From the NCBI GenBank assembly GCA_037442505.1, contig JBBIPZ010000026.1:1-30979 (forward strand): 30,979 nucleotides of DNA, given 5' to 3'. This DNA is from JBBIPZ01 sp037442505 [NCBI: Deltaproteobacteria bacterium]. Its GTDB lineage: Bacteria; CALINM01. A program made the translations under genes and the position numbers. A model generated the notes under the pieces. It was not told the DNA's origin. It worked only from the letters and a program-made list of their open reading frames with translations, and searched no databases. The stretch's first letter is position 1. Each line of letters starts with the position of its first letter. This document shows, piece by piece, positions 1-20,213 of this stretch.

Positions 1-2985
1 TGCCATCGTTGGAAAACTCCATATACGCAACTTCACTCAAATCTGAAGCTATTAAAGTTAAGTTAACCTGTTGTTGGTTTGTATATTCAGAACCATCATT
101 AATCTTAATACTGCCCACCGGTGGAACAGTATCAATTGTATAAACCTCGGTAATAACATCGCTTAGATTGCCAACAACGTCAACAGCAAAAAATTTTAAT
201 GTTGTGGTTTCAGTGACAGTGATAGGATTAGTGTATTTTGTTGAATTTACAGTTGGAAGGGTGCCGTTAACAGTGTAATAGATAGTAGCAGGCTCATCAG
301 AAGTTAACGCAATATTTCTTGCAGAGTTATATAAACCACTAGGCAAAGACGCTTTTACAGAAGGCGGAACGGTATCTATAATGTATTGTTCTGTTTTTAC
401 AGGAGTCTGGTTTCCAGCTGAATCAATAGCAAAAAACTTGAGTGTAGAGTTTTCATATATAATGATTGGGGAAATATATATTTGCGAAAATATGGTTGGT
501 TCAGTGCCGTCCAATGTAAAGAATATATATGCTTGCTCATTAGAAGTTATAGTAACTTCTTTGGGCGTGTTGTAAGCAGCACCTTTAGGAGAAACATCAA
601 GGAGTGGATAAGCAGTATCTAATTTTATAGTACTGCTCACTGGCTCTGAATAATTACCCGCAGAATCTTTAAACTTAACATATACAGTTTTGTTACCATC
701 GCCTGATGTAAGAGACCATGTTTTTGATGTAGCATAAGCCTCTTCAGGCGACCAGTTTATACCATCATTCGATAACTGCATTGCAGTAACACCGTTCGCA
801 TCCGTTGCACTAAGTGTTAAATTAACAGAAGTATTCTTTGTTATATTACCGTCATTAATCACAATTGTTCCTGTAGGTGGCGTAGTATCAATCTCAATGA
901 ATGCTGTTTTAACGGTATCATAATTGTTAGCTCTATCATAAGATACATACTTAATTGATGAAGTCTGAGTTATATTGAATGTGACTTTCTGGGTAGTTGG
1001 ATCAGCACAGGTTTTCGTTGTTGAGTAAGATGGATCGGTGCCATCAAGTGTGTAACAAATAGTAGCATGCTCATTAACATAAATTGTTACATCCTGTGGC
1101 GAGTTATAAAGATGTCCATCTGGGCTAATTGTTGTGTTTGGAGCGGTCTGGTCAAGAATTATCGAATCGCAAATTGGTGAAGACCAGTTACCTGCTAAAT
1201 CATTATATCTCACACATACAGTTTTTTGCCCATCTCCTGGTGAAAGTTCGTATATTTTAGATGTACTATAAATTTCCTCTGGAGTCCAATTTACGCCATC
1301 AGCAGAAAACTGCATCTTTGTCTGACTGCTGGATTCAGAACCGCTCAAATTCAGTGTGACATATACTGAAGACGTGTATAAATCACCATTATTTATTTCG
1401 ATAGTTCCGGTAGGCGGAATAAGATCGAGAGAGTAATTATAAACTTGCGTTTGTGAAGAGTTGCCTGCTTTGTCAATAGCTAATACTTTCAACAGCTTGC
1501 TATCTGATATCAAAATTGGCGCTACATATTGAGTAGAGCTATTCGTGGGCAGTGTGTTATCCAGTGTGTAATAAATTTTATCACAACCAGATCCATTCTC
1601 ATCTACACATGACAGTTCAACACTTATTGAATTATTATATGTTCCTGAAGCCCTTGAAGCTGTAACTACCGGATTTAAAGTATCCAAAATTATTGTATCT
1701 GAGGCGATGTTAGACCAATTGCCCACCGCATTTTTAAATCTTACATAAACAACTTTTAATCCATCTCCAGAAGAAAGTGTCCATGCAATAGTAGAAGAGA
1801 AAGCATAAACATTAGTAGTAAAATCTGATGGTTGAACATCATTCATTATCTGAACGTGAGTTACGTCTGTTAAACCAGAAACATTAAAAGATAAGGTTAC
1901 ATTTCTATTGTTGGTAGCAAATAGACCATTATTTATTGTTACGCTGCCCTCTGGTGGGGTCTGGTCTATTGTATACGTTGATGTGACAACGTCCCCAGAG
2001 TTACCTGCTGAATCTACAGCAAAAAACTTCAATGTTGTTGTGGTAGATATTTCTATTGGATTGCTATAAACATTTGAGCTAAATGTGGGTACAGTTCCAT
2101 CAATAGTATAATAAATTGTAGCCTGTTCATTGGAAGATAACGTTACTATCTGAGGTGTGCTGTAAACACCAGTAGCTGGAGTAGCAACAACCGTTGGTGG
2201 GGTAGTATCCAACCTTATAGAGTTCGAAACTGGAGAAGACCAGCTACCTGCACCATTTTGCACAGTTAAAAACACTGTTTTTTGCCCATCCAAAGCTGAT
2301 AACGTAAAAACCTTTGATATAGTGTAATTTTCTGGATTCGTCCAGCTAATACCATCTTCAGAAAACCTCATTTTACTACATGCGGTTTCTGGATCATTAC
2401 AGGTTATTGTTAACGTTACATCACGATTATTTGTTATTGGTGCACCACCGTTAATGATGAACCCAACGCTTGGTGGCGTCTGATCAATAACATAGTTTGC
2501 AGTTCTTTCTGTTTCGGTGTTACCAGCTTGATCCTTTGCATAAAACCTTAAAGTTGTTGTTCTATCCACCAAGATAGCACCAGTATAGATATTTGTTGGT
2601 GTGGTTCCATCTGTAGAATAATAAATTGTAGCTGGTTCGTTGGAATACATCGTTATCAGTTGTGGTGTACTGAATGTTGCAGGTTGAGGATAGAAAAATG
2701 TTGTGGGTGGCGTTTTATCTAAAATTATCTTATCTGAGTAAGTCTGAGAAACATTTCCATCGTTATCTTTAAACCTTACATAAACTGTTTTTTCACCGTC
2801 GGATTGATTGATAAAAGTATATGTTTTTGTGGCAGAAAAAGTTTCGTATAGACTCCAGTTAATACCATCTTCAGAAAACTGCATCTCACCACAACCACTT
2901 CCAGTATCGTTACAGGTTAAAGATAAATTAACCGTGGTAGACATTGTATAACTGTTATCATTGTCGATTATAATTGAGCCGATTG
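1..2985 (-). repeat. Alternating two-type Ig-like module array (A-B)n
   Basis: Each A module (about 90 residues) has an I.IN.G...T....VNLTL start, MQFS.DG.NWS, KTVYVRFKD.AGN.S and an end in LDTTPP. Each B module (about 80 residues) resembles the chitobiase/beta-hexosaminidase C-terminal family: SP.G.YN.P..VT..SNE.ATIYYT.DGT.PT, LKFFA.DSAGN, IDTTPP. The order from the N-terminal side is A-B-A-B-A-B-A-B-A-B-B-A(cut). The DNA copies have diverged, so this is old module duplication. Confidence 0.8.
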
Positions 2986-4894
2986 GTGGTATGCTTTCTT
3001 TAAAGTTTGCCACCACTGAGGCATTATTAGAAGTATCAACACTACAGGTAGAAGTCCCGATACACGCACCTGACCATCCCGTAAATTCGGAACCATTATC
3101 AGCGTTGGCGTAAAGAAGTATTGTTGTAGGAGAAGTATATGTGGCGCTACAGCTGTTGCCACAGTAAATATCATTAGGAAAAGAAGTAATAATACCAGTT
3201 CCTTTACCTCTCTTCGTAACATTAAGAAAACTTCTACCAACACCTTTAAACTGCAGCATGATAGATGGCTCGATAAAGTCATTTGAGCTTATAGTAACGT
3301 TCAAAACTTTTTCTCCTGCAGATACAGGCTTAAACTTAAATGCTATCCTGCAGGTCTCATTTACATTTAAAGTTATATTTGCGCAGCCGTTTTCTAACAA
3401 AATAAAATCAGCTGTATTACCTGAAAGACTGACAGAACTGATATTTACTGGCAAAAATCCAACTGCTTTTATAATAAATTCTAATGCCAGGGTTTCGCTG
3501 AACAGATCAGTTGTGCCAAAATCATTAATTCGTGATACGGGATTGATACTAAGCTTAGAAAAACTTATATTTTTAGGAACATAAGAATCTGTTGTAGTTC
3601 CATCTCCAAGTTGTCCAAAATTGTTACGTCCCCAGGAATATAACGATGGTGTTGATTTTAACCCTATGGAATGGTAACCAGAAGCGTCAATGTTTGTCCA
3701 ATCGGTATCACTTCCTATCTGTGAAAAGCTGGCTTTAGGAGAGGTGTTTCCTGTGCCCAATTGACCAAAAAAATTAAAACCTGTCGCCCATAACGAGTTA
3801 TCTGTTTTTTTTGCAAATGTATGATATGCACCAGCCTTTACATCTGACCAATTTGTGTCAGTTCCAATCTTAGTTATGGTTGTTATTTGAGTTGGCGGTA
3901 CCGCCCCTAAACCTAATTGTCCATTACCATTATACCCTACTGCCCATAACGTACCATCATTTTTAGTAGCTATCGTATGTAATTCTCCTCCAGCCACCAT
4001 TGACCAATTCGTATCAGAAGTAGAACAACTAAGAGTCCCTAAAAAAAGGCTCTGACTTCCTTCAACACCAGCATAGCTATATGTCTTGGCACCAGTACAA
4101 ACCCTTGTAGGCACATTTTTATCAGGTGTTGATAAAGTAACCAGTTCATAACTTGAACATGCTGAGAAAGAAGTTACATTTAATGGAGTTAGACATTTAA
4201 CCTTTTCTTCCACATACCCAAGCTGTCCAGTTGAGTTACTGCCAAAGGCATATAAAGTTCCATCCGTCTTAATCGCAAGAGAGTGAAATCCACCAGCAAC
4301 AACTTTTGCCCAGTTAGTATCTGTGCCTATCTGAACAGGTAGTAGTTTATCAGCACCAGTTTCGTCACCATTTCCTAACTGTCCAAAGCCGTTATCCCCC
4401 CATGCCCACATACGTCCATCAGATGTAATCGCAACGACATGATAGTAGCCTGCTGAAAAAGACACAACATTGCCAAAATTAACAGTGTTTCCACTTGAAT
4501 CTATAGCGGTAGTTATTTTAATAGGTCTATCTTTCCCTCCGGTGATTCCTGTTCCGTCACCTAATTGTCCCGATATGTTATCGCCCCACGCCCATAAAGA
4601 ACCATCTGCCTTTAATCCCACACTAAATTTATAACCAGCTGACACATCAACCCAGTCTGTATCAGTGCCCACCTGAACAGGTGATTTGACCATACCACCG
4701 GTAGTGCCTATACCTAATTGACCAGAAGAGTTGTCCCCCCACGCCCATAAAGAACCGTCCTGGAGTATCAAAAGATTATGAGATGCTGTTACACCATCAC
4801 CACCTGCAGCAACTTTAAGCTCTGCGGCAAATGAGTGATTTGCAAACATAATGAAATATATTGCGATTATTATTTTTGCTATTTTCCTGAGCAT
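1..4894 (-). CDS. Giant secreted RCC1-propeller / Ig-like repeat protein (3' end outside window)
   Basis: The frame is open from an ATG at 4894 to base 1 with no stop (1631 codons), so the C-terminus lies outside the window. A Sec signal peptide (basic MLRK start, hydrophobic stretch, likely cleavage after residue 23, SFA/AE) points to export. Residues about 40-440 hold seven RCC1-type repeats with WAWGDN..GQLG cores (near residues 50, 101, 163, 215, 317, 369, 420), enough for one closed seven-bladed propeller. Residues about 445-555 resemble an ASH/choice-of-anchor beta domain. Residues about 556-632 resemble a divergent InlB B-repeat (GSEFTGWSGAC..). From about 638 on, two Ig-like module types alternate. 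One has MQFS.DG.NW and KTVYVRFKD; the other has the chitobiase/hexosaminidase C-terminal-like core TIYYT.DGT.PT and LKFFA.D.AGN. It is probably a surface or extracellular adhesin-like protein; ligand unknown. Module calls are by eye. Confidence 0.88.
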   Translation of the reverse strand, partial: MLRKIAKIIIAIYFIMFANHSFAAELKVAAGGDGVTASHNLLILQDGSLWAWGDNSSGQLGIGTTGGMVKSPVQVGTDTDWVDVSAGYKFSVGLKADGSLWAWGDNISGQLGDGTGITGGKDRPIKITTAIDSSGNTVNFGNVVSFSAGYYHVVAITSDGRMWAWGDNGFGQLGNGDETGADKLLPVQIGTDTNWAKVVAGGFHSLAIKTDGTLYAFGSNSTGQLGYVEEKVKCLTPLNVTSFSACSSYELVTLSTPDKNVPTRVCTGAKTYSYAGVEGSQSLFLGTLSCSTSDTNWSMVAGGELHTIATKNDGTLWAVGYNGNGQLGLGAVPPTQITTITKIGTDTNWSDVKAGAYHTFAKKTDNSLWATGFNFFGQLGTGNTSPKASFSQIGSDTDWTNIDASGYHSIGLKSTPSLYSWGRNNFGQLGDGTTTDSYVPKNISFSKLSINPVSRINDFGTTDLFSETLALEFIIKAVGFLPVNISSVSLSGNTADFILLENGCANITLNVNETCRIAFKFKPVSAGEKVLNVTISSNDFIEPSIMLQFKGVGRSFLNVTKRGKGTGIITSFPNDIYCGNSCSATYTSPTTILLYANADNGSEFTGWSGACIGTSTCSVDTSNNASVVANFKESIPPIGSIIIDNDNSYTMSTTVNLSLTCNDTGSGCGEMQFSEDGINWSLYETFSATKTYTFINQSDGEKTVYVRFKDNDGNVSQTYSDKIILDKTPPTTFFYPQPATFSTPQLITMYSNEPATIYYSTDGTTPTNIYTGAILVDRTTTLRFYAKDQAGNTETERTANYVIDQTPPSVGFIINGGAPITNNRDVTLTITCNDPETACSKMRFSEDGISWTNPENYTISKVFTLSALDGQKTVFLTVQNGAGSWSSPVSNSIRLDTTPPTVVATPATGVYSTPQIVTLSSNEQATIYYTIDGTVPTFSSNVYSNPIEISTTTTLKFFAVDSAGNSGDVVTSTYTIDQTPPEGSVTINNGLFATNNRNVTLSFNVSGLTDVTHVQIMNDVQPSDFTTNVYAFSSTIAWTLSSGDGLKVVYVRFKNAVGNWSNIASDTIILDTLNPVVTASRASGTYNNSISVELSCVDENGSGCDKIYYTLDNTLPTNSSTQYVAPILISDSKLLKVLAIDKAGNSSQTQVYNYSLDLIPPTGTIEINNGDLYTSSVYVTLNLSGSESSSQTKMQFSADGVNWTPEEIYSTSKIYELSPGDGQKTVCVRYNDLAGNWSSPICDSIILDQTAPNTTISPDGHLYNSPQDVTIYVNEHATICYTLDGTDPSYSTTKTCADPTTQKVTFNITQTSSIKYVSYDRANNYDTVKTAFIEIDTTPPTGTIVINDGNITKNTSVNLTLSATDANGVTAMQLSNDGINWSPEEAYATSKTWSLTSGDGNKTVYVKFKDSAGNYSEPVSSTIKLDTAYPLLDVSPKGAAYNTPKEVTITSNEQAYIFFTLDGTEPTIFSQIYISPIIIYENSTLKFFAIDSAGNQTPVKTEQYIIDTVPPSVKASLPSGLYNSARNIALTSDEPATIYYTVNGTLPTVNSTKYTNPITVTETTTLKFFAVDVVGNLSDVITEVYTIDTVPPVGSIKINDGSEYTNQQQVNLTLIASDLSEVAYMEFSNDG
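3575..4777 (-). repeat. Seven RCC1-type beta-propeller repeats
   Basis: Protein-level repeats of about 50-60 residues, each with a small-residue turn (SAGY/VAGG), a variable-to-conserved strand and a W-x-W/x-G-x-N core followed by GQLG. The repeat around residues 215-300 contains an insertion with several cysteines (residues 234-290). Seven copies match the number needed to close an RCC1 propeller. Confidence 0.8.
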
Positions 4895-4976
4895 AATAAT
4901 ACCTATTCCATCATTCTTATTTTTTTTGATATTGTAAGCAAAAAATGAGCCCGGAGAAGGGGTTAACCACATACAA

Positions 4977-11536: not shown

Positions 11537-12606
<1,070 letters not shown>

Positions 12607-12636
12607 AGAAATTAATATTTTCTAAGTGTTTAAGTC

Positions 12637-13122
12637 CTATTTACTCTTCTCTTCCCTTAAAATTGCGATAGGCCCCGTTCTAACAAGCTCTTTTATTCCA
12701 AGTGGTCTCAGCAAATTTACAATAGCATTAATTTTTTGTTCATCACCTGTAACTTCAATAGTGTAAGTCGTCGGACTTGAATCCACTACACGCGCCCTAA
12801 AAATATTGGTAATTCTTAAAGCTTCTTCCCTGTCACTACCTTTTGCTGATACTTTGATTAAAGCTACCTCGCGTAAGATATAATCCTGCCCACTATAATC
12901 ACTAACCTTTATTATATCTATGGTTTTGTTTAGTTGTTTGGTTATTTGTTCTATCACCTTATCATCTCCAGCTGTGACTATTGTCATCTGGGATATGCTT
13001 GGATCTAAGGTTGGAGCAATAGAAATGGATTCGATGTTAAAACCTCTTCCACTAAAAAGACCAGCAACTCTTGAAAGAACTCCAAACTTGTTTTCTACTA
13101 ACAAAGAGAGAATATGTGTCAT
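12637..13122 (-). CDS. ilvH: Acetolactate synthase small (regulatory) subunit
   Basis: 161 residues, full length. The N-terminal ACT domain (residues about 3-75) shows LLVENKFGVLSRVAGLFSGRGFNI and the effector-site Asn-Ile. The C-terminal domain begins near REVALIKV and ends with the conserved GIKELVRTGPIAILRE. It binds IlvB, raises its activity and carries valine feedback inhibition in known relatives. AGAAGGAGA precedes the ATG, and it starts 11 bases after the ilvB stop. Confidence 0.96.
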   Translation of the reverse strand: MTHILSLLVENKFGVLSRVAGLFSGRGFNIESISIAPTLDPSISQMTIVTAGDDKVIEQITKQLNKTIDIIKVSDYSGQDYILREVALIKVSAKGSDREEALRITNIFRARVVDSSPTTYTIEVTGDEQKINAIVNLLRPLGIKELVRTGPIAILREEKSK

Positions 13123-13133
13123 AGAGTCTCCTT

Positions 13134-14879
13134 CTATTTAACTGCTTTTAGCTTGTCAGATTTTTTTTCTTTTTTATTAGGTAAAATCATCTCGTTTATG
13201 GCACCACCCGCTGGCACCATAGGAAACACCTTCTCCATCTTGTCAATCCTGAAGTCCATCAAAACGGGCTTTTTAACTTTGATAGCCTCTTTCAAAACCG
13301 GTTCAACCTCAGAAGGTGTTGTTGCACGCAATCCAACAGCCCCATAAGCCTCAGCAAGTTTAATAAAATCAGGGGACTCTTCGCAAAGAATAGAAGAAGA
13401 ATAGCGCTCGCCATAAAACAGTTCCTGCCATTGACGAACCATACCAAGACAGGTGTTGTTTAAAATGGCTACTTTGACATTTAGCTGTTCTATAACAGCT
13501 GTTGCTAATTCCTGAATATTCATCTGAATACTGCCATCACCGGCGATGTCAAAAACAATCTTATCTGGATTAGCTGCTTGCGCACCTAAGGCAGCAGGAA
13601 AGCCATACCCCATTGTTCCTAAACCACCAGAAGTTAACCACGTGCGAGGCTTAATAAATTTATAAAATTGCGCAGCCCACATCTGATTCTGTCCTACTTC
13701 TGTCGCAATTATAGCATCGCCTTTTGTAAGTTCGTAAATTTTCTCAACAACAAACTGCGGTTTTATAACTTCGTCGTTCCATTCATACCATAAAGGATGC
13801 TCGCTTTTCCAATCAGTTATAGTCTTCTTCCACTGTTTTCTTGCGGCAGAGATAACTTCGTTTTCTTCCTTTAATAATGTTTTTAACCCTTTTATAAGGT
13901 CAGTCAAAACTAACTTAACATCTCCAACTATCGGAATATCCACATGAACACTTTTTCTGATAGATGTCGGGTCGATATCTATATGGATTATTTTTGCTTC
14001 TGGAGCAAAATCCTTAACTCTTCCCGTTACGCGATCATCGAAGCGAGCACCTACTGCAATAATAAGATCAGCATTGTGGATTGCCATATTTGCCACATAA
14101 GTACCGTGCATACCAAGCATACCAAGAAATAATGGATCGTCACCCGGAAAACCTCCCAATCCCATCAATGTTAAGGTAACAGGTATATCAGTCATTTTTG
14201 CAACATCTCTTAACTCATCACTTGCATTAGAGAGAATCACTCCTCCACCTGCATAAATTATAGGTTTTTTCGCCTTAACTATTGCCTCTGCCGCCTTTCT
14301 TATCTGCCATCTATTCCCAATATAGGTAGGATTGTAACTTCTGATGTTGATGGTCTCTGGATAAACATAGTCAGTCTTAGATGCTATTATATCTCTTGGA
14401 ATATCAACAAGTACTGGGCCTGGTCTGCCTTTAGAAGCTATATAAAAAGCCTCTTTGATGATATATGCAAGGTCATTAACGTTTTTTACAAGGTAATTAT
14501 ATTTTGTGCATGGACGAGTTATTCCAACTATGTCAGCCTCTTGAAACGCATCCACACCAATCATTGGAGTTGGAACCTGACCTGTAAATACTACTATCGG
14601 AATAGAATCCATATAAGCTGTTGCGATACCGGTTACAGTGTTTGTTGCGCCAGGACCAGAAGTTGCAAGTGCAACGCCTACCTTTCCTGTTGAGCGCGCA
14701 TATCCATCTGCCATATGAACTGCAGCCTGTTCGTGGCGAGGCAGTATAACCTTAATCGACTTTTCATTGTAGAGAACGTCAAAGATAGGCAATACAACAC
14801 CACCAGGGTATCCAAATATCGTGTTTACACCTTCTTTTTTTAAAGACTCTACAAAAATTTCTGCACCAGAAAGTTTCAC
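13134..14879 (-). CDS. ilvB: Acetolactate synthase large (catalytic) subunit
   Basis: 581 residues. A ThDP- and FAD-dependent enzyme that joins two pyruvates, or pyruvate and 2-oxobutyrate. N-terminal PYR domain with [13 protein letters not shown] and the catalytic Glu E50 in [17 protein letters not shown]; central FAD-type domain; C-terminal PP domain with the ThDP motif [15 protein letters not shown] ... LNN near residue 450-475. The end is Lys-rich. It starts at a GTG that overlaps the TGA of ilvD by 4 bases, so the two are translationally coupled. Confidence 0.97.
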
Positions 14880-16534
14880 AAAACCTCCTTGAATACCGCA
14901 CCTTTTGCGGCAGATGTTACAAATTCTGCATACCTTTTTAAATAACCTCTAAGTGGCTTTTTTAAAGGTTTATACTGTTTTTTGCGTTTTTCTACCTCTT
15001 TTTCAGATATCAAAGCCTCTAACTTTCTTTTTGAGATGTCTATCAGTATCCTATCACCATCTTTCAAGAGCCCTATAAGCCCACCTTCAGCCGCTTCAGG
15101 TGAAACATGTCCTATACATGGTCCTTGAGTACCACCAGAAAATCTACCATCTGTAATTAATGCTGCAGATTTTGCCAGCCCCATACCCACAAGTGCAGCT
15201 GTAGGCGAAAGCATTTCTCTCATTCCAGGCCCACCTTTTGGACCTTCATTTCTAATCACAACGACATCTTTTGGTTTTATTTTACCAGAAATTATAGCCT
15301 TCATAGCATCTTCTTCACACTCAAAAACCTTAGCAACACCTTCAAAAACAAGCATTTCTTTTGCAACTGCAGATTGTTTTACAACTGCTCCTTCAGGAGC
15401 GAGATTTCCTTTCAAAATAGCTATACCACCTTCTTTATGATGCGGATTTTCTAAACTCCTTATAATATCATCATCGTAAACCTCGCCTGATTTAGCAACC
15501 TCTTTGATATCTTTTCCAGAGACAGTCTTATTACTCAAAAGCCTTTTTTCTAATCTGTTTAAAACTCCAGCAATCCCACCAGCTCTATCCAAATCTTCCA
15601 TATAGTAAATGCCGCCAGGTATCATACTAACAATGTGGGGCGTCTTTTTGCTTATTTTATCGAACAAATCAATCTTTACCGGACAGCCTGCCTCGTATGA
15701 TATTGCTGTAAGATGTAAAACCGTATTGGATGAACCGCCAAGTGCAACATCAACGGTTATGGCGTTTTTTATAGCATTCTCATTTACAATATCTCTTGGA
15801 CAGATATTTTTCTTAACTAACTCAACTATCTTCAAACCACTTTCAAAGGCGATATGTTTCTTTTTACTTGAAACTGCAAGTGCAGTTGCACAACCGGGCA
15901 GGGACATTCCCATTGCTTCTGTTAAACATGCCATAGTGTTAGCAGTGTAAAGCCCCTGACAGGAACCAGCACCCGGGCAGGCATTTGCCTCATACCCAGC
16001 TAACTCCTCTGCAGATAATTCACCCTTATTATATCTGCCAACCGCCTCAAACGTCCCACTCACAAGAGACAACCTTTGTCCTTTATAGTAGCCTGCGAGC
16101 ATTGGTCCAGCAGTGACGAAAATGGAAGGGATATTCAACCTTAGCGAAGCCATCAACATTCCGGGCGTTATTTTGTCACAATTTGTTAAAAATACAAGGC
16201 CATCAAGCTTATTTGCTGAAACAACACATTCGATTAAATCTGCAATCGCCTCTCTGGAAGGGAGAGAATATTTCATCCCTTCATGCCCCATTGCGATCCC
16301 ATCACAAATACCAGGTACGGTTAAAGTAAAACTGTAGCCACCACCAGAATGGATGCCTTTTTCGATAAATCTTTCAAGGTCTCTCATTCCAACGTGACCA
16401 GGTATAAGCTCGTTATAGCTGCTTATTATCCCAATGAAAGGCCTTCCCATCTGCGTATTAGGTAATCCACATGCCATAAGCAATGCTCTATGTGGCGCCC
16501 TTTCAACACCTTTTTTTATATCATCGCTTCTCAC
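14876..16534 (-). CDS. ilvD: Dihydroxy-acid dehydratase
   Basis: 552 residues from the GTG at 16534, which has AAGGAGG at the ideal distance and gives the family's normal start (VRSDDIKKG). An ATG 9 codons upstream (16561) is in frame but would add an atypical tail. It dehydrates the IlvC products to 2-oxo acids. The iron-sulfur Cys positions are visible in [11 protein letters not shown] (C119 from the GTG) and [10 protein letters not shown] (C186, C192). The early segment reads [11 protein letters not shown], with Gly where [2Fe-2S] enzymes typically have Cys, as in the E. coli-type oxygen-sensitive [4Fe-4S] enzyme (inference). A perfect 12-base palindrome sits in its leader. Confidence 0.95.
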
Positions 16535-16611: not shown

Positions 16612-16845
16612 TTAGTTATTTTTGCTTCTATACTCTTTTAAAATCTCAAACATCCTGTCCTTCCCAGCTAACTTTATCTTCTGTAAACGCTTTTTTTCAA
16701 GTTCCTCTTCCGGGGTAATATAATGCTTGCTTTCAAATTCTGCAATTTTGCCTTTTAACTCAAGATGTTCTTCGTAAAGCTTTCTAAACTCTTCATTTTC
16801 ATCAACCAACTTTTTAACCAATGCTTCATCTTTCAACAAATCCAT
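16612..16845 (-). CDS. DUF465/YdcH-like small protein, nested in frame at the 3' end of tkt
   Basis: 77 residues starting at the ATG at 16845, inside and in frame with the transketolase gene. The sequence MDLLKDEALVKK then EFRKLYEEHLEL, YITPEEELEKKRLQKIKL and KDRMFEILKEYR has the pattern of DUF465/YdcH proteins: short helical-hairpin proteins of unknown role with the ELxxKRLxKxKLxxKD core. AAAAGGAGGC (16858-16849) stands 4-6 bases before the ATG, as good as any ribosome site in the window. It could be made separately by internal initiation as well as being the tail of the fusion. Confidence 0.6.
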   Translation of the reverse strand: MDLLKDEALVKKLVDENEEFRKLYEEHLELKGKIAEFESKHYITPEEELEKKRLQKIKLAGKDRMFEILKEYRSKNN

Positions 16846-18798
16846 ACTGCCTCCTTTTGTTAAAGTTGGATTAGTAATAAAATTTTTTATTCTTTCCGCT
16901 GCCTTTTCAGAACTTAAACCGATCATATCGAAAACCTCTTCCGTTGCACCCGAAAAACAATAATTTTCAATGCCTAATTTAAGAATCTGACAAACTACCC
17001 CCTTTTCAACAAGATAATCGCTGATAATTGAGCTTAACCCGGTGAAACAGTTATGATCTTCGTATGTAATAATTTTGCCTAAATTCACGACTTTATCCAT
17101 TATATCTTCGTCTATCTGCTTGGGTGAAGAAACATTTATAACCATAACCGATATGCCGTTTTCTTTAAGAATTTCTGCAATCTTTATAGCTCTATATACC
17201 ATCACTCCGTAAGTTAGTATTGCGGCATCTTTCCCATTTCTAAGTATATCCCATTTACCATATTTATATCTATAGTTTTCATCAAAAAAAGGCGTTCCAT
17301 CTTCCTTTGTGATTACAGGTGTAACAGACCTTCCCATACCTATAAAAACATTTCCTGGTGTAGCAAGCTCTCTGGTTACTACTCTAAATGTCTGATTTGC
17401 ATCTGCAGGCATAACAACTCTGAAGCCAAAGAGATTTCTAAGTAAGCCTAAGTAATCTATACATTGATGTGTTTTCCCGTCCTCACCCACATCAACACCT
17501 AGATGAGTACAAACGACTTTTAGATTAGTATTGTTTATATCGTTCAATCGTTGCTGATTATAAACCTCATCAATACCAAAAACACCAAAATCTGCAAAAA
17601 CAGAAACCAAGCCTTGAGTAGAAACTGCACCAGCAATGGTACATGTGTTATGCTCTTGAATTCCACTCTCAAAGAAGTTTTCTGGAAACAGTTTTGCAAA
17701 ACCATCAACTTTTACAGAAGATGCCAAATCACAATCAAACACAGCAAAGGGAAGATAATCTGATAATAAGTTTGCTTTTGCAGCTTCCACTAAAGCATCT
17801 CCAAAGGCAGATCTCATATCAATCTTTTTATCTTTCTCATAAACTTTTTGTTGAGGCTCTTTTAACTTCGGAAACAGAGAATGTGCCTTTACATACTGAA
17901 CAGGAAATTTTTTGTTTTTCCTCAAATCTTCGTAATACGCCAATTTGTTATCACTGTTAAGTTCCTGAAGGGCTTTTTCATACTGTTCTCTTGTAAGTGC
18001 TTTTCCGTGATAATCTTTTATATTCTCCATAAAACTGACACCTTTACCCATAACAGTATGTGCCAATATCACAGCTGGCCCACCCTTTGTCAACGCAGTG
18101 CGAACTGTATTATAAATTGAGTTAAAATCATGTCCATCTGTTTCGTAAACATCCCAACCATCTGAAAGATAGTTTTCTTTTAAATTCTGCTTCATTACAA
18201 AGTCTGTAGAGCCAGAAATCTGTAGTTTATTCATATCAACAAATGCAAAAAAATTGTTTAAATTGTATTTTTTTGCAAATCTTCTTGCCTCCGTAAGTTG
18301 TCCTTTTTGCTGCTCTCCATCCCCCATAACAACAAAAACAAGACTATCCTTTTTCTTAAGCCTGGCAGATAATGCAAAACCACACCCTGCAGAAAGTCCC
18401 TGTCCTAAATTTCCCGTTGACCAATCAACACCTTTAAGATGTCTTTCTATATGGCCTTCGTAAGGACTTCCAGCCTTCCTAAAGTATGCAATCGCCTCGT
18501 CTATATCAAAAAAACCCAGTCTGCCAAGCGTTGAATAAACACCAGGAGATGTATGGCCATGGCTAACTACCACGTAATCCCTTTCATCAGTATCGGCATT
18601 ATCTGGATTTATATTTAAAAAGTAGAAAAGCGTAAGAAAAATTTCAAGTGATGACATAGACCCACCCGGGTGTCCCGAATTTGCAAGTGTCGTCATCGTT
18701 AAAATATCTGCGCGTGCCTGTTTTGCTGTGTCTTCTAAAAACTTCTGCACATTGGCTGTTATTTTCTCATCTTTAAATCTGTTGTTTTTCTGCTCCAT
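16612..18798 (-). CDS. tkt: Transketolase with in-frame C-terminal DUF465-like extension
   Basis: 728 residues. The first about 650 make a complete single-chain transketolase (ThDP enzyme moving two-carbon units between sugar phosphates): GHPGGSMSSLEIF near residue 43, SHGHTSPGVYSTLG, the ThDP motif GDGEQQKGQLTEA...MNKLQ, the PYR-domain segment ESGIQEHNTCTIAGAVSTQG, and a C-terminal domain ending about SSEKAAERIKNF. Residues 652-728 are a charged, coiled-coil stretch that matches the small DUF465/YdcH family and begins at an internal ATG with its own AAAGGAGG. Either a true fusion, two overlapping products, or loss of the original stop. The start at 18798 has GAAGGAAC before it. First gene of the minus-strand biosynthetic run, divergent from the HD gene. 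Confidence 0.93.
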   Translation of the reverse strand: MEQKNNRFKDEKITANVQKFLEDTAKQARADILTMTTLANSGHPGGSMSSLEIFLTLFYFLNINPDNADTDERDYVVVSHGHTSPGVYSTLGRLGFFDIDEAIAYFRKAGSPYEGHIERHLKGVDWSTGNLGQGLSAGCGFALSARLKKKDSLVFVVMGDGEQQKGQLTEARRFAKKYNLNNFFAFVDMNKLQISGSTDFVMKQNLKENYLSDGWDVYETDGHDFNSIYNTVRTALTKGGPAVILAHTVMGKGVSFMENIKDYHGKALTREQYEKALQELNSDNKLAYYEDLRKNKKFPVQYVKAHSLFPKLKEPQQKVYEKDKKIDMRSAFGDALVEAAKANLLSDYLPFAVFDCDLASSVKVDGFAKLFPENFFESGIQEHNTCTIAGAVSTQGLVSVFADFGVFGIDEVYNQQRLNDINNTNLKVVCTHLGVDVGEDGKTHQCIDYLGLLRNLFGFRVVMPADANQTFRVVTRELATPGNVFIGMGRSVTPVITKEDGTPFFDENYRYKYGKWDILRNGKDAAILTYGVMVYRAIKIAEILKENGISVMVINVSSPKQIDEDIMDKVVNLGKIITYEDHNCFTGLSSIISDYLVEKGVVCQILKLGIENYCFSGATEEVFDMIGLSSEKAAERIKNFITNPTLTKGGSMDLLKDEALVKKLVDENEEFRKLYEEHLELKGKIAEFESKHYITPEEELEKKRLQKIKLAGKDRMFEILKEYRSKNN
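16849..16858 (-). promoter_or_regulatory. Internal ribosome binding site inside tkt
   Basis: AAAAGGAGGC on the minus strand, encoding TKGG within the transketolase frame, ends 3 bases before the ATG at 16845. Strong SD and ATG pairs are rare inside coding regions by chance, which supports a formerly or still independent start. Confidence 0.6.
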
Positions 18799-19856: not shown

Positions 19857-19883
19857 TCTTAAAATTTAATTGAGGGGGGATTT

Positions 19884-20213
19884 ATGGCAGAAAATGTGAA
19901 AGCTATTAAAGACGTAGATTTTGACAGTGTTGTTTTGAAATCTTCAAAACCAGTTCTTGTGGATTTCTGGGCAAGCTGGTGTGGACCTTGTCGTATGTTG
20001 GCTCCTGTTATTGAAGAGCTTGCATCACAATACGGAGATAAGGTTGATTTTGTAAAGATAAATGTTGATGAAAATCCTGAAACTCCCAGAAAATACGGAA
20101 TCAGGGGCATACCAACACTTATCCTTTTTAAAAACGGAGAGGCTATAAACACATCTGTTGGAGCTATCCCAAAGGGACAGATTGAAGATATGATAAAAAA
20201 GGCCGGGATTTAA
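19884..20213 (+). CDS. trxA: Thioredoxin
   Basis: 109 residues, standard single-domain thioredoxin that reduces protein disulfides in the cytoplasm. The redox motif WCGPC is at about residues 33-37 within LVDFWASWCGPC, and the cis-Pro loop GIRGIPTLILFKNGE at about 74-88. No signal peptide. GAGGGGGGA gives a strong ribosome site before the ATG. Last gene of the HD-Rrf2-trxA operon, ending at a hairpin shared with the convergent rodA gene. Confidence 0.97.
   Translation: MAENVKAIKDVDFDSVVLKSSKPVLVDFWASWCGPCRMLAPVIEELASQYGDKVDFVKINVDENPETPRKYGIRGIPTLILFKNGEAINTSVGAIPKGQIEDMIKKAGI

What the first reader, a model, noticed from the sequence alone, without database searches (positions are those of the whole stretch)
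16612..16870. Transketolase reads in frame into a DUF465/YdcH-like gene that keeps its own ribosome site and start
The transketolase chain is complete by about residue 650, yet the frame continues for a 77-residue DUF465-type protein beginning at an ATG with AAAAGGAGGC before it. This looks like two adjacent genes whose intervening stop was lost, or a fusion with a second internally initiated product. A cell would then have both a tailed transketolase and free DUF465 protein. DUF465 proteins have no firm function, so a physical link to a central carbon enzyme would be informative.
Basis: partly seen in the sequence, partly recalled or inferred. Interest (0 to 1): 0.7.

Follow-up and report, generated by a model that had tools for sequence, protein, structure and literature searches.

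The report
Transketolase fused to a DUF465 gene
In this genome a sugar-metabolism enzyme gene runs without a stop into a small neighbouring gene of unknown function; close relatives keep the two apart, so this is a recent merger or a one-letter sequence error, and the small gene's usual neighbours are the branched-chain amino acid genes.

Summary
One open frame (16612-18798, minus strand, 728 codons) encodes a complete transketolase (about residues 1-641), an 11-residue linker that includes the next gene's translated ribosome site, and a 77-residue DUF465 protein starting at ATG 16845. In the three nearest relatives (65-67% identical) the two are separate adjacent genes: each transketolase has its own stop and each DUF465 gene lies in another frame. 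None of the 56 related transketolases with a readable end (of 59) has the tail. So the join is specific to this sequence: most likely a real recent merger by a small indel, with free DUF465 probably still made from its retained start. A one-base assembly error remains the main rival, because every single-base indel at the junction splits the frame; against it, 17 compared genes (16.4 kb) show no other frameshift. AlphaFold2 gives two confident parts and a disordered junction. In two other phyla DUF465 sits not with transketolase but directly before the ilv/psd genes: 8 of 9 genomes in one, 38 of 40 systematically sampled loci in the other. I found no mention of this linkage in the papers searched. 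It is the more useful lead.

The parts
16876..18798 (-). transketolase part (residues 1-641, homologous to relatives)
   Evidence: tblastn of relatives' ORFs ends at 16876 (L068, L069) or 16879 (L070); Pfam; NCBIfam NF004556 residues 6-641
16846..16878 (-). 11-residue linker ITNPTLTKGGS (residues 641-651; its first residue, 641, still aligns with two of the relatives), including the translated Shine-Dalgarno AAAAGGAGG
   Evidence: AlphaFold2 pLDDT below 50 at residues 646-653
16850..16858 (-). Shine-Dalgarno AAAAGGAGG, 4 nt before ATG; the relatives have AAAGGAGGG followed by CTTT or CTCT
16612..16845 (-). DUF465 domain/gene, 77 aa plus stop, own ATG
   Evidence: PF04325 27.3 bits; alignment A2; model me3ad2f3430ad
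14876..16534 (-). ilvD, next gene of the presumed operon (probable start GTG 16534; the ORF list gives 16561)
   Evidence: relatives' ilvD aligns from 16534 or 16528; aaaaaggaggaataGTG
11537..14879 (-). ilvB, ilvN, ilvC; same order in the L001 and L002 relatives, ilvB and ilvN only in L003
10148..11534 (-). psd and pssA, next in line; same in the L001 relative, the only one whose fetched stretch reaches that far

Best explanation
A lineage-specific merger of two neighbouring genes. The ancestor had tkt (with its own stop), then DUF465, then the ilv genes. An indel (or an indel plus loss of the stop) near the 3' end of tkt put DUF465 in frame with tkt, with the DUF465 ribosome site now translated as part of the linker. 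Shown: one open frame; separate genes in a different frame in all three relatives; retained ribosome site and ATG; a conserved, intact DUF465 domain; two confidently predicted parts with a disordered junction. Inferred: that the stop is absent in the organism; that ribosomes from tkt make a 728-residue tailed enzyme; that independent initiation at 16845 still makes free DUF465; and that the free form keeps the ancestral role, with the tail on transketolase being tolerated rather than functional.
For: Relatives L001-L003: tkt stops, then DUF465 with AAAGGAGGGCTYTATG; the DUF465 frame is offset by 2 from the tkt frame in 3 of 3 and by 0 in the window. Same order tkt-DUF465-ilvD in all three. For 17 window genes the best match in a relative is one stretch in one frame, 16,386 coding bases in all, so the sequence is generally sound. 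Tail identity to relatives (64-74%) is about that of the core (65-67%), so the tail has not decayed. The internal Shine-Dalgarno is among the strongest of those printed for the window's minus-strand genes (my reading). AlphaFold2: 516 of 728 residues at pLDDT 90 or more; the blocks of ten over the tail helices average 91-95 (83 for the last eight residues), and residues 646-653 are below 50. PMC3711429 (abstract and sections 27 and 29 read) suggests that frame changes near a gene's 3' end are more likely indel mutations than sequencing errors.
Against: No read support is available and no whole genome is held for the window. No second genome carries the fusion: 0 of 3 relatives, 0 of 56 related transketolases with a readable end, and 0 of 150 listed (of 170) DUF465 open frames in another phylum are long enough to hold a transketolase (longest 316 codons). 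All 51 one-base deletions and all 204 one-base insertions at the junction split the frame (stop 52 bases before to 17 bases after the DUF465 ATG). The same section 29 of PMC3711429 expects single-genome frameshifts that are validated by BLASTp to be sequencing errors rather than genuine indels.
Confidence: 0.62

Rival explanations
1. Sequence or assembly error: one base was missed or added in the AT-rich junction (runs of six A and four T, then a purine-rich ribosome site), and the organism has two ordinary separate genes as in its relatives.
For: Every one-base indel there separates the genes; relatives are all separate with a different frame offset; no second example; PMC3711429 section 29 expects many single-genome frame changes to be errors.
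Against: No other frameshift in 16,386 compared coding bases of 17 genes. Several further window genes (dapA, dapB, dapL, folK) match NCBIfam models over nearly their full length.
Confidence: 0.3
2. A selected, functional fusion: the DUF465 tail regulates or localises transketolase, in the way DUF465 may act on the ilv enzymes (acetolactate synthase is also a thiamine-diphosphate enzyme; recalled).
For: The tail keeps all invariant family residues; tkt and DUF465 are neighbours in 4 of 4 genomes of the clade, the window included; 3 of 40 loci in another phylum have tkt downstream of DUF465-ilvB-ilvN.
Against: The fused state was found nowhere else; the retained ribosome site means the tail's conservation can be explained by the free protein; contact between the two parts was not examined.
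Confidence: 0.06

Closest known systems
Transketolase, NCBIfam NF004556 (PRK05899.2-2)
   Same: 933 bits, over its cut-off of 575; full profile length
   Different: Carries 87 further residues, 77 of them the DUF465 protein
DUF465 (PF04325); H. pylori HP1242 (PDB 1ZHC)
   Same: Pfam over cut-off on the tail alone; the family profile finds 1ZHC at E 2e-7; predicted helices 7-16, 18-39, 45-76 against 6-14, 18-38, 43-75 reported for HP1242 (PMC3397514, passages read)
   Different: Here joined to an enzyme; HP1242 is described as a 76-residue protein of its own. Foldseek did not list 1ZHC among the 50 matches shown for the model
E. coli YdcH
   Same: Annotated DUF465
   Different: The window tail is below the YdcH cut-off; E. 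coli ydcH lies between opgD and rimL, not beside ilv genes
Translationally coupled genes with frame transitions (PMC3711429, sections read)
   Same: Adjacent genes, the second with its own initiation
   Different: Here the two frames are the same, giving one continuous frame

Membership tests
Transketolase | Full-length equivalog match | tested here: met
   NF004556 residues 6-641, 933.3 bits, cut-off 575
Transketolase | Catalytic activity | not testable with these tools
   No assay
DUF465 (PF04325) | Pfam gathering score on the tail | tested here: met
   27.3 bits, cut-off 25 on the 77-aa tail; 22.9 on the whole 728-aa protein, below the cut-off
DUF465 (PF04325) | All-helical coiled-coil-like fold as in HP1242 | tested here: inconclusive
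   AlphaFold2 mean pLDDT 83, pTM 0.62, three helices at matching places, but Foldseek gave no PDB match with E up to 0.001 and did not list 1ZHC among those shown
YdcH (NF008505) | Equivalog score | tested here: not met
   21.4 bits against 91
Established gene fusion | Fused frame present in more than one genome | tested here: not met
   0 of 3 relatives; 0 of 56 transketolases with readable ends
Established gene fusion | Fused polypeptide detected | not testable with these tools
   Needs proteomics
DUF465 before the ilv/psd genes | DUF465 directly before an ilv or psd gene on the same strand | tested here: met
   Window: DUF465 then ilvD. Elsewhere 8 of 9 and 38 of 40 sampled loci

The most novel reading that the evidence does not exclude
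DUF465 is a dedicated small helical partner of the branched-chain amino acid (and phosphatidylserine) pathway, conserved as the leader gene of the ilv/psd operon in at least three phyla. In this organism it has become physically tethered to a second thiamine-diphosphate enzyme, transketolase, while the free form is still made from the internal start.
Probability: 0.2. Interest if true: 0.6.

Novelty: new variant of a known kind. Interest (0 to 1): 0.4.

Why it matters
The fusion itself is probably a neutral, recent merger or an error. What matters more is what it led to: DUF465, a family without a known function, sits directly before ilvB, ilvD, ilvN or psd in nearly all sampled loci of a large phylum, often with touching or overlapping ends. 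That gives a concrete, testable hypothesis about its role.

Tried and rejected
Tail as an ordinary C-terminus of clade transketolases: rejected, absent in the 56 of 59 loci with a readable end. tblastn ranges that seemed to show tails in L001-L003, L040 and L044 were joined pieces: separate DUF465 genes in L001-L003; in L040 and L044 a downstream frame that I read as a response regulator. In the script my frame choice did not follow the transketolase to its end or followed the wrong piece for these five loci; one search corrects it. Taxon-wide searches for more relatives (family, class, phylum of G003) returned only the same three genomes.

Ten DUF465 matches with open frames of 156-316 codons in another phylum were fetched and read. 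In three (L092, L097, L099) the frame from its first start codon is only 76-77 residues. In six the DUF465 part follows a longer upstream stretch, in most of them opening with low-complexity, Arg/Ser/Gly-rich residues that I take for out-of-frame sequence; I did not scan these with Pfam, so small fusions there are not excluded. L098 looks like a different coiled-coil protein and a probable false match.

Foldseek of the DUF465 model gave nothing with E up to 0.001. Plasmid tblastn: 736 records, all under 60% identity, five rows seen, best 38%. Paper searches: DUF465 (12 papers, listing with abstracts' starts), YdcH (18 papers, 15 listed), HP1242 (4, listing), PF04325 (0), DUF465 with ilv (0), a mixed search (970 papers, 8 listed, none of those 8 with DUF465) and a fusion search (22, 6 listed). 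The statement that I found no mention of the DUF465-ilv linkage rests alone, in an open-licence library only; the 12 DUF465 papers were not opened.

Full report
OBSERVATION. The window carries one open frame at 16612..18798 (minus strand) of 728 codons. Pfam places the three transketolase domains on residues 29-632 and DUF465 on 671-720. The 77-aa tail alone passes the DUF465 cut-off (27.3 against 25 bits), while within the whole protein the score (22.9) is just below it. NCBIfam transketolase NF004556 is complete at residue 641. The tail's ATG is at 16845 (residue 652). The linker ITNPTLTKGGS is the translation of spacer plus the Shine-Dalgarno AAAAGGAGG, four bases from the ATG. Spacings of four bases from GGAGG to the start also occur before ilvD and ilvB in the window.

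RELATIVES. A genome-collection scan returned 59 loci. Three (L001-L003) are 65-67% identical and the next ones at most 52%. In those three, tkt has its own stop (…FLKK*, …FLEEK*, …FNKN*) and is followed by a separate DUF465 gene with AAAGGAGGGCTYTATG and then ilvD. The DUF465 frame is offset by 2 from the tkt frame in all three, and by 0 in the window. The order then continues as in the window to pssA in L001, to ilvC in L002 (end of the fetched stretch) and to ilvN in L003, where the remaining 2.2 kb of the contig has no ilvC match. Of the 59 loci, 56 have a readable transketolase end and none has the tail; L016, L027 and L046 run off their contigs. The three genomes are the only ones the tool returned for their family, class and phylum. 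Each has one DUF465 match, the one beside tkt (coordinates also).

REAL OR ERROR. For seventeen window genes, tkt and DUF465 counted apart, the best match in a relative is one stretch in a single frame: 16,386 coding bases with no frame change except at this join (converse comparison). This covers only part of the window: mreD is too divergent, psd is covered for 165 of 216 codons, and genes outside the fetched stretches were not compared. Against a real merger, all 51 one-base deletions and all 204 one-base insertions from six codons before the linker to the ATG split the frame, with the stop between 52 bases before and 17 bases after the DUF465 start; 4 of 99 substitutions in the linker make a stop. 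A single-base error therefore cannot be excluded. PMC3711429 (abstract, sections 27 and 29) cuts both ways: it suggests that frame changes near a gene's 3' end are more likely indel mutations than sequencing errors, but it expects BLASTp-validated single-genome frameshifts in general to be sequencing errors. It also describes adjacent genes whose second product comes from separate, coupled initiation. I put a real merger at roughly two in three; that is a judgement, not a computed value.

PRODUCT. AlphaFold2 on the fused protein (37-row alignment A1) gives mean pLDDT 90.6, with confident tail helices (658-667, 669-689, 696-727) and a stretch below 50 at 646-653. Docking of the tail onto the core was not examined. 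The tail alone folds as three helices, mean pLDDT 83, pTM 0.62, at the places published for HP1242, a solved DUF465 protein (PMC3397514 passages; 1ZHC found by profile at E 2e-7; not among the matches Foldseek showed). In 31 DUF465 proteins H27, K58 and L59 are invariant and E50 and D63 nearly so; the window tail keeps all of them. Tail identity to relatives (64-74%) is about that of the core (65-67%).

WHAT DUF465 TRAVELS WITH. In the phylum of G008 (9 genomes held) DUF465 is present once in 9 of 9, free-standing, with open frames of 78-87 codons. It is followed by ilvD in 8 of 9 and preceded by a RimI-like acetyltransferase in 9 of 9. In four of four loci scanned with Pfam (L080, L081, L082, L086) that gene is an acetyltransferase and the gene before it is TsaD-family, as expected of TsaB. 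In the phylum of G016, 168 of 395 genomes have a match; 150 of 170 matches were listed, the longest open frame being 316 codons. I took every third of the first 120 listed matches, ±4 kb where the contig allowed (40 loci from 39 genomes). A gene of the ilv/psd/pss set lies in 38 of 40. By nearest same-strand neighbour downstream (among the window's proteins and a few reference genes): ilvB 27, ilvD 6, psd 3, ilvN 1, plus L132, where the DUF465-like frame was missed by BLAST but lies directly before ilvB. The two misses are L107 (match at a contig end) and L129. Of 37 gaps 27 are at most 60 bases and 13 are zero or negative; frames were taken from their first possible start, so gaps may be understated. 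As a control, none of 18 other window proteins in the same search appeared in any of the 40 loci at E 1e-10; tkt appeared in 3, downstream of ilvN. A TsaB-like gene is the nearest upstream match in 17 of 40. L078 (genome G005, DUF465 score below the cut-off) also has tsaB-DUF465-ilvD.

RESULTS AGAINST THAT LINK. L076 and L077 have DUF465 matches below the cut-off with no ilv gene in the 1.5 kb seen on either side. E. coli ydcH lies beside rimL. Ten of 18 genomes and 227 of 395 have no DUF465 match at all; whether they carry ilv operons was not tested, but if they do, DUF465 is not required for the pathway. The sample is ranked by score in one phylum with the weakest matches left out, so 38 of 40 is not a rate for all DUF465 genes.

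INTERPRETATION. The join is best read as a recent merger of two neighbouring genes in one lineage, with the downstream ribosome site left intact. The organism may then make a tailed transketolase and free DUF465, neither shown. The tail tells little about DUF465, whose usual context in the genomes sampled is the ilv/psd gene set. A role near acetolactate synthase, dihydroxyacid dehydratase or the expression of that operon is a reasonable hypothesis, without direct evidence here. Leader-peptide control seems unlikely, because the protein is conserved at residue level across phyla and shows no Ile/Val/Leu runs (my reading of the alignment).

Noticed in passing
L103-L142; L080-L088: DUF465 is nearly always the gene directly before ilvB, ilvD, ilvN or psd (38 of 40 sampled loci; 8 of 9 genomes in a second phylum), often with touching or overlapping ends.
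   Followed up: partly
L080-L088; L143 (E. coli): DUF465 lies next to a RimI/RimL-type acetyltransferase gene both in the phylum of G008 (9 of 9) and in E. coli (ydcH-rimL).
   Followed up: partly
L105, L111, L117: DUF465-ilvB-ilvN followed by a transketolase gene, a different order of the same genes.
   Followed up: no
window 19859-20213: Open frames on both strands (19859-20152 minus, 19884-20213 plus) both match frames in relatives at 68-79% identity; which strand is coding was not resolved.
   Followed up: no
window 2-4972: 1657-residue frame open at the window edge with a match to OmpL47-type beta-barrel domain models.
   Followed up: no
L107 and L114 (genome G333): Two DUF465 matches in one genome, one before ilvD and one at a contig end with no ilv gene in the 4.1 kb downstream.
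   Followed up: no
L003 / L070 (genome G003): ilvC does not follow ilvN on this contig, unlike in the window and the two other relatives.
   Followed up: no
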